Part shown: in pieces, positions 29,212 through 63,887 of the stretch | Position numbering within the stretch: the stretch's first letter is position 1 | Layout: each line of letters begins with the position of its first letter | Origin: Methylomagnum ishizawai | GTDB taxonomy: Bacteria > Pseudomonadota > Gammaproteobacteria > Methylococcales > Methylococcaceae | DNA length: 64,000 nucleotides | Direction of reading: 5' to 3' | Assembly: GCF_019670005.1 (NCBI RefSeq) | Contig: NZ_AP019783.1 | Coordinates: 1,136,501-1,200,500 of the forward strand | The notes under the pieces: generated by a model | Database searches by the model: none | The model's input: the letters and a program-made list of their open reading frames with translations, nothing else | Told to the model about the DNA's origin: nothing | Position numbers and translations under genes: made by a program

Positions 29212-29567
29212 GGGGGTGACTTGGCTTCGACGTGGATTACAAAACCTTAGGTGCATGCCGAGGTGCGGATTACCTCGTAAAACAATTCGCAATCTTATAG
29301 TTGCCAACGACGACAACTACGCTCTGGCTGCTTAAGTCAGCCAGCCTCTGACCAGGGTTTGCTTACGGACGCTGACTCAGGGGTAACACAATCATAAGCT
29401 CGCGAGGAGGCACGTCCGGGGCCGAATCGCTAAAAATCACGGAATCGCCGTTCTCTCGCCCTGCCGTTCGGGTGAAGCGCGGTTAAAAATCAATAGAGCC
29501 GGATAAGCATGTAGAGCCGAGGGCGGAGGATTTGCGGACGCGGGTTCAATTCCCGCCACCTCCACCA
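29212..29567 (+). ncRNA. ssrA: Transfer-messenger RNA (tmRNA)
   Basis: A 356-nt tmRNA that rescues stalled ribosomes. The 5' end GGGGGUGACUUGGCUUCGACG pairs with the 3' end CACCUCC-ACCA in the acceptor stem (one G-U pair), and the T-arm GCGGG-TTCAATT-CCCGC is intact. The tag reading frame at 29303-29335 encodes ANDDNYALAA and a TAA stop. The last about 26 nt overlap the left attachment core of a prophage, so the present 3' end was supplied by the element. Confidence 0.97.
29542..29560 (+). other. attL core of the prophage (inside ssrA 3' end)
   Basis: GGGTTCAATTCCCGCCACC, a 19-bp sequence repeated exactly at 63869-63887. It begins within the tmRNA T-arm. Confidence 0.9.
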
Positions 29568-38234: not shown

Positions 38235-40364
38235 CTAGGGCGCGGCCATGTTGAGTTCGTGGGCGAGGCGTTGCCCGCTCATGGGCTGGCCGTAGTTGTG
38301 GACATGCACCGCGCCGATGGAGCGGCTGCTGTTGGTGTTGATGGCGGTGCTAATTTGCTTGGCAACGCCGCCGGGCGCACCGCCCCCTTTGGGCGCGGCC
38401 AATCCCGCCGGGGGGCCGGGCAGGGCGGCGGCGGGCGCGGCCCCGAAGCTGGGCATCGAAAACGAAGGCATCGACCACCCGGCGAACGGATTCAAGCTGG
38501 CGATGGCTCCGACCAGCGCTTGCCATTGGGCGGAAATGCCGCCGATGAAGCCATCCCACCAGCCGGTGAGGCCGGACCATGCGCCCAGGATGCTGGCGAC
38601 ATAGCCGCCCATTCCGCCCGCGAAGCCGTCCCACCACAGCGTGAGGCTATCCCATCCGGCGACGATATCGCCGACCCCGAACGAACCGATGGACGCCAGC
38701 CAAGTTTGGACCGCGCCCAGAATCGATCCGGTCCAACGGCCCACCGCGCCGGTCCATTCATCCCAGTACACGACCGCCGCCACCACCGCCGCGCCCAGGG
38801 CGATCACGCCCGCGACAACCCAGGTGATTGGGTTCGCCAGCAAGGCGGCGGCGAAACCCCACACGGCGGGCAGCGCCCCGAGGATGCCCATCCGCAGAAT
38901 CCCGAAGGCCAGTGCGGCCCCACGGCTGGCCGCGTTCCACAGCCACATCGCCGCGCCGGACAGTTGCACTTGCAGGGCGAAGGCCAGCATGATCGCCCGC
39001 AGCCCCGCGAGCATCCCGCGCCACAGCCCACCCATGGCCAGGGCCGCGAGCCACGCCAGGCGCAGCAGCTTGAACGGCGCGATCAGCAGCCATACCGCAC
39101 CCTGTAGCAGCATCATCCCGCCTTGCAGTCCGACCAATAGGAACCGGCCCACGCCCACGGCGATGGACAGCGCGGATACGGCGGCGATCAAAGCCAGGAT
39201 GCCCAGCACACCCTTCCCGAGCGCGGCGGTGAGGTGGGGAAACAGGTCGGTCCAGCGCAAGAGGCGCTGTTCCAGGGCGGTGATCTTGTCCAGGGTGGGC
39301 GTGAGCGCCGAAACCATCTTCTGGCCCACGGCGATGCGTAGCGCGTTCGCGCCCGAAATCACCCGGTCGAACGGGTCCACCATCGCATCAGCCATGCGCT
39401 GTAGTTCGGCCAGTCCCTTTTGCTGGCCGATGTCCTTGATGTTCTTGCCGAGGCCGTCCACATCGGTCATCAACAGCTTAATCAGCGACACCGCCTCGCC
39501 CGAGCCGAACGCCTTCTTGAGCGCGTCCGATTCGGCCACGGTGTCGATCTCGCCATACTTGCCCTTGATCTTGTTCAGCACGTCCACCATGGGCAGCAGC
39601 CGCCCACGGGCATCGGTGAATTTCAGCCCGAGTTCTTTCTGTGCCCCGCCCACGCCGTCCAGGAACGCCCGGTACTTGGTGCCCGCCTCGGCCCCCGGCA
39701 TGGTGGCTTGCAGGGTGCCCAGCACGGCGAACTGTTCGGCCATGGCGATCCCGGCGGTGGTGGCGTTCGCGCCCAGGTTGGTGAATGCCTCGGACATGCC
39801 CTTGCCGTCCGTCTTGAATACGTTCACGGCCATGGCGGTTTGCGCGGCCAGCATTTCGACCCAGTTGGACCGGCCCATTTGGTCGGCGGTCTTCTGGAAA
39901 ATGCCGTACATGGTGCCCACGTAGCTGGTGATATCGCCCACGTCCGCCTTGGTGCCCTTGGCGAGCAAGGCCGAGGCCGTGGTGAAGGCGGGAAGTTCGT
40001 TGCCCACGAGGCCCGCGATAGCGCCCTGGATATCGTAGGAAGCGGAGACAAACTCCGCAGCGCTTCCGCCGTACTGCGTGCTGAACCGGAGGGCGGTACT
40101 GTTAAGGTTGTCGAGTACGTCCTGGGCCACGCCCAGCGATTTCACCTCGCCCAGGGCTTTATTCATCTCGCGGGCCGGGTTCACGATCTCGACCAACGCC
40201 GCGCCGGTACCCACCAGTCCGGCCACGCCGTAGCCGATGCGTTGGTAGCCCTTTTCAGCATGGCCGGTGAGCTTGTCCAGCGCCTTCATGGCCTTTCCCG
40301 CCGGGCCGGTCATGCGGTCGATCAGGGATAGGACGAATTCGAGGCGGGAGGTTGCGGCGGCCAT
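38235..40364 (-). CDS. Phage tail tape measure protein
   Basis: A 709-residue tape measure of the TIGR01760-type core (FVSASYDIQGAIAGLVGNELPAFTTASALLAKGTKADVGD, split here as one family region around residues 100-170, and GTKYRAFLDGVGGAQKELGLKF). A strongly hydrophobic central section (about 360-560) has several membrane-like helices. Size predicts a tail of roughly 100 nm by the usual rule, an estimate only. Confidence 0.9.
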   Translation of the reverse strand: MAAATSRLEFVLSLIDRMTGPAGKAMKALDKLTGHAEKGYQRIGYGVAGLVGTGAALVEIVNPAREMNKALGEVKSLGVAQDVLDNLNSTALRFSTQYGGSAAEFVSASYDIQGAIAGLVGNELPAFTTASALLAKGTKADVGDITSYVGTMYGIFQKTADQMGRSNWVEMLAAQTAMAVNVFKTDGKGMSEAFTNLGANATTAGIAMAEQFAVLGTLQATMPGAEAGTKYRAFLDGVGGAQKELGLKFTDARGRLLPMVDVLNKIKGKYGEIDTVAESDALKKAFGSGEAVSLIKLLMTDVDGLGKNIKDIGQQKGLAELQRMADAMVDPFDRVISGANALRIAVGQKMVSALTPTLDKITALEQRLLRWTDLFPHLTAALGKGVLGILALIAAVSALSIAVGVGRFLLVGLQGGMMLLQGAVWLLIAPFKLLRLAWLAALAMGGLWRGMLAGLRAIMLAFALQVQLSGAAMWLWNAASRGAALAFGILRMGILGALPAVWGFAAALLANPITWVVAGVIALGAAVVAAVVYWDEWTGAVGRWTGSILGAVQTWLASIGSFGVGDIVAGWDSLTLWWDGFAGGMGGYVASILGAWSGLTGWWDGFIGGISAQWQALVGAIASLNPFAGWSMPSFSMPSFGAAPAAALPGPPAGLAAPKGGGAPGGVAKQISTAINTNSSRSIGAVHVHNYGQPMSGQRLAHELNMAAP

Positions 40365-40367
40365 GGA

Positions 40368-40820
40368 TCAACGCCCCTCGAACAGCGCCCGCTCGGCCCG
40401 TCGCCGGGCGATCAGGTATTCGCAAGCCACCAATCCATCATTGATATAAATCCCGAAGGCCCGTGCCGCGCCTGCATAATCGCCATCGTTCAAGCGCTTG
40501 GCGACTTCGCACCCGGCGAAGGATTGCTTTTGCTGGCCCAGGCTGAAGGCCAGCGACACCAACGCATCGAACTGGTGCTGATTCAGCGCCACCTTGACAT
40601 ACAGCCGGATGTTCTTGGCCGCGATCTCGCAATCGTCCTTCAGCAGCGCTTTAGCCTCGTTCTTGGTCAAGCGGTCGGGCACCATGTCCCCCTGTCGCTT
40701 GATGTGGCCGTAGCCGATTTCCGCGTGCCCCCACTTGCCCAGCCCCCAGGTCGACAGGAAGGTTTCCATCCGCATGATGGCGTCCAGGCCGTTCGCCGAT
40801 AGCCGCATTTCCGCGTTCAT
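40368..40820 (-). CDS. Lysozyme-like GH24 paralogue lacking two catalytic residues
   Basis: A 150-residue protein with clear GH24 lysozyme C-terminal features (LNQHQFDALVSLAFSLGQQ, SFAGCEVAKRLNDGDYAGAA, RRRAERALFEGR). Glu19 is present, but the aspartate expected nine residues later is Gly28 and the threonine of TIGYGH is Glu34 (AEIGYGH). It therefore may be inactive or altered. No signal or anchor. ATG 40820 overlaps the upstream endolysin stop (ATGA), so the two are made together. It could modulate lysis or bind peptidoglycan. Confidence 0.75.
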   Translation of the reverse strand: MNAEMRLSANGLDAIMRMETFLSTWGLGKWGHAEIGYGHIKRQGDMVPDRLTKNEAKALLKDDCEIAAKNIRLYVKVALNQHQFDALVSLAFSLGQQKQSFAGCEVAKRLNDGDYAGAARAFGIYINDGLVACEYLIARRRAERALFEGR

Positions 40821-41302
40821 GCCCCCGCCCCCTTGAACCCAGCGCGGCACAGTTCGCGCTCTTCGGCCCGGCGGCGGGTCAAGCCCGGCCATTCCACGCC
40901 CCCGGCCTTGTTCCACCGGGGGAACTCTTCGCACGCCCCGGCGATGTCACCGGCATTGAGCTTGCGCCGCAAAGTGGACTTGCAGAACGCCCCGGTCCCG
41001 ATGTTGTATGTGAGGTCTAGCGCCGCGATATAGGCACCGTCCGGGATGGACTCGGGCCGGTCCAGGCACGCCACCATGCCCGCCTCGAATTCGCGCAGCC
41101 GCGCGCCGAGCAGGGTCCGGCATTGGTCGGCGGTCGCACGGTCGCCCATTCGGACACCGCGAGTCTCGCCAAAACAGATCGTGGGGATACCAATGGGGTC
41201 GCGATAGGCCACGGTGCGCAGCCCTTCGTAGCCCCCGGTCAATGCCACCGCCGCCGCCAGCACGCCGCCGGTCAACCGGCTTTTCTTGAACTTCGCCGCC
41301 AT
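40817..41302 (-). CDS. SAR-type GH24 endolysin
   Basis: A 161-residue lysozyme with an N-terminal signal-anchor-release segment (TGGVLAAAVALTGGYEG). The complete GH24 catalytic triad with E-X8-D-X5-T spacing is present: Glu26, Asp35 and Thr41. It should be secreted by Sec, tethered to the membrane and released on depolarisation to degrade murein. Located directly before the degenerate lysozyme and behind the tail chaperone. Confidence 0.88.
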   Translation of the reverse strand: MAAKFKKSRLTGGVLAAAVALTGGYEGLRTVAYRDPIGIPTICFGETRGVRMGDRATADQCRTLLGARLREFEAGMVACLDRPESIPDGAYIAALDLTYNIGTGAFCKSTLRRKLNAGDIAGACEEFPRWNKAGGVEWPGLTRRRAEERELCRAGFKGAGA

Positions 41303-41303
41303 G

Positions 41304-41764
41304 TCATTTCCCCGAAAACGCCTTGTCGATACCCGCCGCCACCGCCGCCCGCATGTGTTCCCAGTACCGTTGCTCCAGCCACAGCGCGGCCCCCAGCGTC
41401 TCGGGGTCCGGCTCGCAGCCTGGAAAATAGTGCCGGGCCAACCAAAGCAACTGCCCGTAGCCGTCCGCCTCTAGGCGCTCGGCCCGAGCTTGGGCTTTTT
41501 TACGGCCACCTTGACGGTTTCGGCCCCTTCCTCCACCAGTGCCCCGGCCACTTGCAAGGCCAGGATGCCCTTGATTTCACCCCCGGCGGTCAACGCGCCT
41601 TTCAGGGCGTCCCGTTGGTCCGGGACCACGCAGCCCATACAGAAATTGAAGGCCGGGCCGATCTTGTCGGCGGGCGTGGTGTCGTTCAGGAAAGTGTTGA
41701 TGGCGGTATGGTCCACGGTGAACGCGAAGTCCACAGCGCCGATGGATAGCGTTGTCTCTGGCAT
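41304..41764 (-). CDS. Tail assembly chaperone, -1 frameshift product
   Basis: If ribosomes slip -1 at the A_AAA_AAG heptamer (41501-41495), the 90-residue N-terminal part of the tail assembly chaperone continues into an otherwise start-less frame of 63 codons ending at TGA 41306-41304, giving a 153-residue protein. The extension has real protein character (LLWLARHYFPGC, PDPETLGAALWLEQRYW) and resembles small phage families placed before tape-measure genes. This is the P2 gpE/gpE+E' and lambda gpG/gpGT arrangement. The stop sits 1 bp before the endolysin start. Confidence 0.82.
41471..41764 (-). CDS. Tail assembly chaperone, zero-frame product
   Basis: A 97-residue protein (MPETTLSIGAVDFAFTVDH start) whose position between the tail tube and the tape measure fits tail assembly chaperones, which coat the tape measure during tail building. 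It ends VAVKKPKLGPSA when no frameshift occurs. The start ATG 41764 follows a GGGGATA leader. Confidence 0.8.
   Translation of the reverse strand: MPETTLSIGAVDFAFTVDHTAINTFLNDTTPADKIGPAFNFCMGCVVPDQRDALKGALTAGGEIKGILALQVAGALVEEGAETVKVAVKKPKLGPSA
41495..41501 (-). promoter_or_regulatory. Programmed -1 ribosomal frameshift site
   Basis: The heptamer A_AAA_AAG in the correct phase (codons GTA AAA AAG) lies just upstream of the zero-frame stop at 41471. The -1 frame is open before and well beyond that stop. GC-rich sequence downstream could form a stimulating stem. Confidence 0.85.
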
Positions 41765-42364: not shown

Positions 42365-42811
42365 CTACAGCCCCTGGGTGTCGGTTTTGCGGAGGTACGG
42401 CACGCCGTTGATCCGCACGAAGTCGGGCGAGGTCACATAGAACGGCACCTTGCGCTTCACCTTTTCCGCCGCCTTGGGGTCGATGCTCACGAGGTCGGAA
42501 ATCTTCAGCTTGCAGCCGAACAGCTCCAACTTCTCCGATTGCTCCCCGAAGCTGCCCGAACACACGATGTCGAACGCGGCCAGGTCTTTCCAGGAACCGG
42601 CGGTCTGCGCCTGGTCGTTCAGCTTCTTGAATTCCTTCAAGCTGAATTCCAGTTCGCCCTCGCACGACACGTCCCCGTCGATATCGCCATCGGGCACGCC
42701 GTTGGTGCTGGCGAAGGTGCTGTTGTCGGTGATGGTGGCCGTCATGTTTTCCACGTTCACGGCGGTGTTGCCGATGATGATGTGGAAGTTCTTGCCGGAT
42801 AGGTGGCTCAT
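42365..42811 (-). CDS. Phage tail tube protein (DUF2597 type)
   Basis: A 148-residue beta-rich protein (MSHLSGKNFHIIIGNTAVNVENMTATITDN start) of the type encoded directly behind the sheath gene, as P2 FII is. Segment ELEFSLKEFKKLNDQAQTAGSWKDLAAFDIVC is characteristic of the DUF2597 family. It should form the inner tail tube. Confidence 0.78.
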   Translation of the reverse strand: MSHLSGKNFHIIIGNTAVNVENMTATITDNSTFASTNGVPDGDIDGDVSCEGELEFSLKEFKKLNDQAQTAGSWKDLAAFDIVCSGSFGEQSEKLELFGCKLKISDLVSIDPKAAEKVKRKVPFYVTSPDFVRINGVPYLRKTDTQGL

Positions 42812-63868: not shown

Positions 63869-63887
63869 GGGTTCAATTCCCGCCACC
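63869..63887 (+). other. attR core of the prophage
   Basis: Exact 19-bp copy of 29542-29560. It is followed by CCACCA where the intact tmRNA has TCCACCA, so this displaced end lacks one T. It is the end of the displaced ssrA 3' fragment. Confidence 0.88.

What the first reader, a model, noticed from the sequence alone, without database searches (positions are those of the whole stretch)
41304..41764. Programmed -1 frameshift in the tail assembly chaperone
A_AAA_AAG in the correct phase sits 22 bp before the zero-frame stop, and the -1 frame continues for 63 sensible codons to a stop one base before the endolysin start. The downstream frame has no start of its own and would be missed by gene callers.
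Basis: partly seen in the sequence, partly recalled or inferred. Interest (0 to 1): 0.6.

Follow-up and report, generated by a model that had tools for sequence, protein, structure and literature searches.

The report
Phage tail chaperone with ribosomal frameshift
A dormant virus in this bacterial genome very probably makes two versions of a tail-building helper protein by having some ribosomes slip back one base at a run of six A's, a well-known trick of tailed phages that is strongly conserved in its relatives.

Summary
On the minus strand a 97-aa ORF (41764-41471) has A_AAA_AAG in phase (41501-41495), 21 nt before its TAG stop; the -1 frame then runs 63 codons to TGA 41306-41304, one base before a phage lysozyme gene. 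The ORF is Phage_TAC_10 (PF10963). The -1 frame is DUF6890 (PF21830, E 2.8e-23), a family of unknown function. Of 251 loci with the -1-frame domain, 247 were classifiable and all 247 carry an in-phase A_AAA_AAN heptamer at the junction, as do 79 of 79 loci from bacterial genomes. The first heptamer codon is GTA in 292 of 294 distinct junctions, although GTA is 5% of Val codons in the window's class. This strongly supports programmed -1 ribosomal frameshifting in an HP1-type tail module, working like lambda G/GT; P2 E/E' is only an analogue by sequence. One phage record (ACA1) already predicts it. Verdict: real and well supported, but a new member of a known kind. Small additions: a role for DUF6890, two site architectures, and a predicted hairpin at the window's site. 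Frameshifting itself is not shown experimentally.

The parts
41471..41764 (-). Tail assembly chaperone, zero frame (97 aa, 'G'-like product), Phage_TAC_10
   Evidence: PF10963 48.9 bits, cut-off 25.7; phrog_1214; weak fold resemblance to phage tail assembly chaperones
41495..41501 (-). Slippery heptamer A_AAA_AAG, zero-frame phase GT[A AAA AAG]
   Evidence: in-phase AAAAAAN in 247 of 247 classifiable loci and 79 of 79
41304..41495 (-). -1 frame 'T' domain, 63 codons plus TGA, DUF6890; read as the C-terminus of a 153-aa fusion
   Evidence: PF21830 E 2.8e-23; phrog_7050
41471..41473 (-). Zero-frame stop TAG, 21 nt after the heptamer
41453..41489 (-). Predicted 14-bp stem-loop starting 5 nt after the heptamer (zero-frame stop in its apical loop): candidate stimulator, function not shown
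   Evidence: z -2.33, 6 of 200 shuffles as stable; 1 of 80 synonymous resamplings as stable; same core helix in G001, z -3.57
40817..41302 (-). Phage lysozyme/endolysin gene starting one base after the T stop (context)
   Evidence: PF00959
40368..40820 (-). Second phage_lysozyme-family gene (context)
   Evidence: PF00959, 82.7 bits
38235..40364 (-). Tape measure protein gene (context)
   Evidence: phrog_28; PF10145
42365..42811 (-). Phage_HP1_Orf24-family tail protein, taken as the tail tube protein (context)
   Evidence: phrog_1182 tail protein; PF10772
42827..43954 (-). Tail sheath, DUF2586 (context)
   Evidence: phrog_907; PF10758

Best explanation
[quoted passage not shown] Most ribosomes end at TAG 41473-41471 and make the 97-aa chaperone. 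A minority, with tRNAs on AAA AAG, slip back one base, perhaps helped by the hairpin 5 nt downstream, and make the 153-aa chaperone-T fusion. By analogy with lambda gpG/gpGT, many copies of the short form bind the tape measure protein while a few copies of the fusion recruit tail tube subunits through the T domain (DUF6890). Shown here: phase, conserved -1-frame domain, heptamer invariant in kind with silent positions fixed. Inferred: that slippage happens, its efficiency, the hairpin's role, and what the T domain binds.
For: -1 frame is PF21830/DUF6890 (E 2.8e-23) and zero frame is PF10963. In-phase A_AAA_AAN in 247 of 247 classifiable loci, of 251 with a T match, and in 79 of 79. First heptamer codon GTA in 292 of 294 distinct junctions (CTA in 2); in the AAG class all 150 are GTA AAA AAG, where GTA is 5% of Val and AAA 18% of Lys codons elsewhere in the same ORFs (the contrast is milder in the AAC and AAA classes, 24% and 70-75%). 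Codon-position entropy of the -1 frame after the zero-frame stop is 0.41/0.22/0.95 in 120 distinct AAG-class T sequences of 62 codons, the window's 63-codon one not among them. 92 of 294 T frames have no ATG/GTG/TTG in their first 30 codons, and in 153 of the other 202 the first one is at codon 16 or 17. Downstream structure exceeds synonymous resampling in the AAC and AAA classes, with covariation above shuffles. Predicted chaperone fold (pLDDT 91.4) is closest to phage tail assembly chaperones among viral models.
Against: No expression data. One relative, L168, has an extra base that puts both parts in one frame, so separate short and long forms are not indispensable there, unless it is a sequence error. 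Foldseek matches are weak (best E 0.013 and 0.015; none at E 0.001 or better). The AAG class as a whole shows no excess downstream structure (32 examined, mean z 0.11), and HP1 itself and K139 do not either (z 0.21 and 0.14), so a hairpin is not a general feature and the window's may be incidental.
Confidence: 0.95

Rival explanations
1. Transcriptional slippage: RNA polymerase stutters on the A run and yields a mixture of mRNAs, so the fusion is made from altered transcripts.
For: The site is a homopolymeric A run, and the AAA class has 7 A's.
Against: In the loci tallied the run is 6 A's in the AAG and AAC classes and 7 in the AAA class, never more. Slippage needs only a run, yet the phase A_AAA_AAN is constant. 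PMC3711429 (passages seen) ties transcriptional realignment to A runs longer than 7, and A_AAA_AAG and A_AAA_AAA to ribosomal frameshifting.
Confidence: 0.03
2. T is translated as a separate small protein from an internal start (TTG in the window; ATG or GTG in some relatives), not as a fusion.
For: Seven of the 22 fetched phage records annotate T as a separate short ORF. The window has TTG at T-frame codons 16 and 19; 23 of 294 T frames have a start-like codon within the first 8 codons.
Against: 92 of 294 T frames have no start-like codon in the first 30 codons; 153 of 202 others have the first at codon 16-17, inside the region aligned; only 2 of 326 loci have one in the T frame upstream of the heptamer. 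It gives no reason for the fixed heptamer.
Confidence: 0.03
3. The zero-frame stop is a sequencing error or recent mutation splitting one gene.
For: L168 has both parts in one frame.
Against: The split is present in 247 of 247 classifiable loci from several collections, and in the same-genus genome G001 at 90% TAC identity.
Confidence: 0.005

Closest known systems
Pseudoalteromonas phage ACA1 gp36/gp36a (OR438928), HP1-type Peduoviridae
   Same: Same chaperone family (PF10963); the record joins two frames and calls it a projected programmed frameshift analogous to P2. T frame read.
   Different: Heptamer A_AAA_AAA, with the stop at the same 28-nt offset. A prediction; the paper PMC10612066 (passages seen) uses 'frameshift' once, for a reverse transcriptase, and 'chaperone' not at all in its main text.
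Haemophilus phage HP1 orf26 and the following unannotated frame
   Same: PF10963 (134 bits), T domain in the -1 frame, in-phase AAAAAAC.
   Different: Heptamer abuts the stop; orf27, the HP1 tape measure by ACA1's annotation, follows directly; T not annotated.
Phage P2 E / E+E'
   Same: Position upstream of the tape measure gene, annotated -1 shift, homopolymeric heptamer 18 nt before the stop; summarised in PMC3931495 (passages seen).
   Different: T_TTT_TTG, not A_AAA_AAG; PF10109 and PF06528, not PF10963 and PF21830; no detectable similarity.
Lambda G / GT
   Same: Mechanistic model: abundant short chaperone and rare -1 fusion that links tape measure and tail tube (PMC5009743, passages seen).
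   Different: No sequence relation was tested here; lambda's slippery site is recalled and was not retrieved.

Membership tests
Phage_TAC_10 (PF10963) | Profile score above curated cut-off | tested here: met
   48.9 bits against 25.7
DUF6890 (PF21830) | Profile score above curated cut-off in the -1 frame | tested here: met
   81.8 bits against 23.6
Lambda G/GT-type frameshifted tail assembly chaperones | Gene pair between the tail tube and tape measure genes | tested here: met
   Tube-type gene 42365-42811 upstream, tape measure 38235-40364 downstream; two lysozyme genes stand between T and the tape measure, unusual for the family
Lambda G/GT-type frameshifted tail assembly chaperones | In-phase slippery heptamer near the 3' end and an open -1 frame | tested here: met
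Lambda G/GT-type frameshifted tail assembly chaperones | Conservation of the slippery site among relatives | tested here: met
   247 of 247 classifiable of 251; 79 of 79
Lambda G/GT-type frameshifted tail assembly chaperones | Both products made, in a skewed ratio | not testable with these tools
   needs reporter assay or proteomics
Lambda G/GT-type frameshifted tail assembly chaperones | G part binds the tape measure, T part binds the tube protein | not tested
   no interaction data; no complex was modelled
P2 E/E' family (PF10109 + PF06528) | Sequence homology to P2 gpE and E' | tested here: not met
   hhalign probability 0.4% and 0.2% (one P2 sequence each, a weak test); different Pfam families
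P2 E/E' family (PF10109 + PF06528) | Run-of-T heptamer T_TTT_TTG | tested here: not met
   A_AAA_AAG here; T_TTT_TTG in P2

The most novel reading that the evidence does not exclude
Within one homologous chaperone family, phages use two site designs that trade slippery-codon strength against a stimulator. A_AAA_AAG with the stop about 7 codons away mostly does without a hairpin. A_AAA_AAC or A_AAA_AAA directly abutting the stop mostly carries a hairpin 7-8 nt downstream (more stable than synonymous resampling allows in 18 of 24 abutting against 11 of 47 distant-stop representatives). The window and its sister prophage combine the AAG heptamer with a hairpin. DUF6890 would then be the tube-recruiting T domain of HP1-type phages generally. 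Stop position changes only once on the tree, so the association is a hypothesis, not a replicated correlation; that AAG is the stronger heptamer is recalled, not tested.
Probability: 0.3. Interest if true: 0.45.

Novelty: new member of a known kind. Interest (0 to 1): 0.27.

Why it matters
It gives two families of unknown function (DUF6890/PF21830, phrog_7050) a likely role as the frameshift-encoded half of a tail assembly chaperone, which annotation leaves out or calls separately in 21 of the 22 HP1-type records that I fetched. It also offers a natural series of sites, with A, C or G at the last heptamer base, stop abutting or distant, and hairpin present or absent, for measuring what sets frameshift efficiency in phages.

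Tried and rejected
P2 E/E' homology: no similarity found. Solved-structure search by sequence: TAC profile only 3fgx (E 0.026), T profile nothing. NCBIfam: no model for either part. TAC protein in relatives: 2 of 101 genomes, own and G001. PF10963 over the class: 2 of 369, one of them the window's own. PF21830 over the order: 4 of 311, own genome and G001 included. Scan of viral contigs with the window T domain alone: 27 pattern matches, none a relative. Common hairpin for the AAG class: only distant or poorly kept helices, and synonymous resampling gave mean z 0.11. Correlation of last heptamer base, stop position and hairpin: one change of stop position on the tree, so not testable. Papers: no hit for DUF6890, PF10963, PF21830, phagetac10, phrog7050 or phrog1214 in the held library; HP1-plus-frameshift searches gave nothing. 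Whether Xu et al. 2004 listed HP1 was not checked; it was not read. Errors of mine that were replaced: one search picked the wrong zero-frame stop for L002 and had no row for L007 (both mended); alignment A7 held L002 in a wrong frame and was replaced by A8.

Full report
Observation. The feature lies on the minus strand. ORF 41764-41471 (97 aa) ends with GT[A AAA AAG] CCCAAGCTCGGGCCGAGCGCC TAG. The heptamer is in X_XXY_YYZ phase, and the -1 frame continues for 63 codons to TGA 41306-41304, giving a 153-aa fusion. A lysozyme gene (PF00959) starts after one base. In isolation the open frame would be weak evidence at 63% G+C, and AAAAAAG is not rare (3 in the window, 4.76 expected).

What the two frames encode. 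The zero frame is Phage_TAC_10 (PF10963, 48.9 bits; phrog_1214). The -1 frame alone is DUF6890 (PF21830, 81.8 bits, E 2.8e-23; phrog_7050); both exceed Pfam's cut-offs. NCBIfam has no model for either. AlphaFold2 folds the TAC part well (mean pLDDT 91.4). Foldseek matches are weak by E-value, none at 0.001 or better, but fit: 3fgx in the PDB (E 0.013, TM 0.65), and among viral models several named tail assembly chaperones, the first at E 0.015.

Context. Neighbouring genes are tail sheath (DUF2586), an HP1 Orf24-family tail protein and a tape measure protein, with P2-family capsid, GpR, baseplate J and terminase genes further out. The element is therefore an HP1/P2-like myophage prophage. A 19-bp sequence at the 3' end of the tmRNA gene (29542-29560) recurs at 63869-63887, which suggests integration in ssrA and a length of about 34 kb.

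Conservation, sampled mostly by the T domain and not by the heptamer. I fetched 22 annotated phage loci chosen for diversity (20 from the 73 records hit by T, and L007 and L025 from the 30 hit by TAC), 222 viral contig loci (the first two scans kept the best 80 of 466 and of 405), 79 genome-contig loci, and loci from own and related genomes. In one search, 251 of 252 loci had a T match; L252, a partial PF21830 match of 25 bits, had none. Four were not classifiable: L031 and L213 have too little upstream sequence, L110 is cut short but shows AAAAAAG, and L168 has an extra base that puts both parts in one frame. All 247 others carry an in-phase AAAAAAN heptamer: 91 AAC and 68 AAA abutting the stop, 85 AAG beginning 28 nt before it, and one each of AAG at 43, AAA at 28 and AAG at 52. 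These 247 include the window three times and G001 twice. The 79 genome-contig loci all have AAAAAAG, 78 at 28 and 1 at 43. Of these 326, 325 had enough upstream sequence for and gave 294 distinct junctions; the first codon is GTA in 292 and CTA in 2. In the AAG class all 150 junctions are GTA AAA AAG, although elsewhere in the same ORFs GTA is 5% of Val codons and AAA 18% of Lys codons. In the AAC and AAA classes the contrast is milder (GTA 24%, AAA 75% and 70%). Silent positions are thus fixed, as expected for a recoding site, while bases around the heptamer vary. The sample is uneven: the scans were seeded with known members.

The -1 frame looks translated. After the zero-frame stop, 120 distinct T sequences of the AAG class (62 codons; the window's 63-codon T is not among them) show column entropy of 0.41, 0.22 and 0.95 bits at codon positions 1, 2 and 3; the chaperone frame shows 0.71, 0.52 and 0.99. 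Window against G001: dN 0.050 and dS 0.141 there, 0.061 and 0.353 in the chaperone upstream of the site; with 11 changes this pair alone is weak. 92 of 294 T frames have no ATG, GTG or TTG in the first 30 codons, 153 have the first at codon 16 or 17, and 23 within the first 8; only 2 of 326 loci have one in the T frame upstream of the heptamer. Separate initiation is therefore not general.

Stimulators. In the window a 14-bp stem with a 5-nt spacer follows the heptamer, with the zero-frame stop in its loop (-24.5 kcal/mol, z -2.33, 6 of 200 shuffles as stable; G001 z -3.57, 0 of 200). Against synonymous resampling the first 45 nt give z -2.17 (1 of 80 as stable) and -2.45 (0 of 80), but the next 45 nt give -0.54 and -2.99, so in G001 the signal is not confined to the site. 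By my reading the two prophages differ at three bases of this stretch, two of which keep a pair and one of which breaks it. In the classes with the stop abutting, the first 45 nt are more structured than synonymous resampling allows (30 sampled each; mean z -1.85 for AAC, -2.93 for AAA), while the AAG class is not (32 examined, mean 0.11). Later windows are weaker but not flat (AAC 90-135: -0.89; AAA 45-90: -0.88). Named helices keep 89.8% and 75.7% of pairs in 48 and 37 distinct sequences, with covariation scores above all 500 shuffles. The number of pairs changed on both sides is less striking (22 and 283 of 500 shuffles reach it), related sequences can exceed shuffles without structure, and in the AAA class sliding the helix by three columns still pairs 55%. 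Among 71 representatives, z is below -1 in 18 of 24 with abutting stop and in 11 of 47 with distant stop; HP1 itself (0.21) and K139 (0.14) show none. On their tree stop position changes once, the last heptamer base four times and the hairpin times, so the link between site type and hairpin is not independently replicated.

Mechanism. The best reading is tandem slippage of tRNAs on AAA AAG, giving mostly chaperone and a minority of chaperone-T fusion. In lambda the short form binds the tape measure protein and the T part of the rare fusion brings in tube subunits (PMC5009743, passages seen). A reporter study of two genes of an HK97-like tail chaperone cluster saw 6% and 7% frameshifting (PMC3711429, passages seen). 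Efficiency at the present site is unknown. Transcriptional slippage is unlikely with 6-7 A's in fixed phase.

Known or new. Frameshifting in tail chaperones is well established (PMC5009743, PMC10885494 and PMC3931495, passages seen). For the HP1 type, the GenBank record of phage ACA1 already joins the frames by analogy to P2, and PMC10612066 (passages seen) explains that HP1-type tail modules are very distant from P2's. P2 gpE and E' belong to other Pfam families and use T_TTT_TTG. Of the 22 fetched records, 1 joins the frames (ACA1), 7 call T separately (phiO18P, phi3, ev239, A051, F108, SI7, yong1) and 14 omit T. No paper naming DUF6890, PF10963, PF21830, phrog7050 or phrog1214 was found in the held library, which lacks most subscription journals. 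I file it as a new member of a known kind.

Noticed in passing
window 40368-41302: Two phage_lysozyme-family genes lie between T and the tape measure gene. Of 330 loci checked with the window's own lysozymes and tape measure protein (other lysis proteins would be missed), only the window and G001 copies (5 records, 2 distinct prophages) have such a lysozyme just downstream of T; 313 have the tape measure gene within 600 nt.
   Followed up: partly
window 29542-29560 and 63869-63887: A 19-bp sequence from the tmRNA gene's 3' end is repeated in direct orientation 34 kb away: likely attachment sites of a prophage in ssrA.
   Followed up: partly
L168, about 1480-1490: A viral contig in which one extra base after the A run puts chaperone and T domain in one frame: a natural fusion-only variant or a sequence error.
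   Followed up: no
L342 12657-13236 and 18628-19128: In the sister prophage of G001, stretches of the tape measure and tail-fibre genes match the window in several extra tandem copies (blastn), which may change tail or fibre length.
   Followed up: no
window 40368-40820: The second lysozyme-family protein seems, by eye and from memory of the Glu-Asp/Cys-Thr motif, to lack part of the usual catalytic residues (sequence). Not tested.
   Followed up: no
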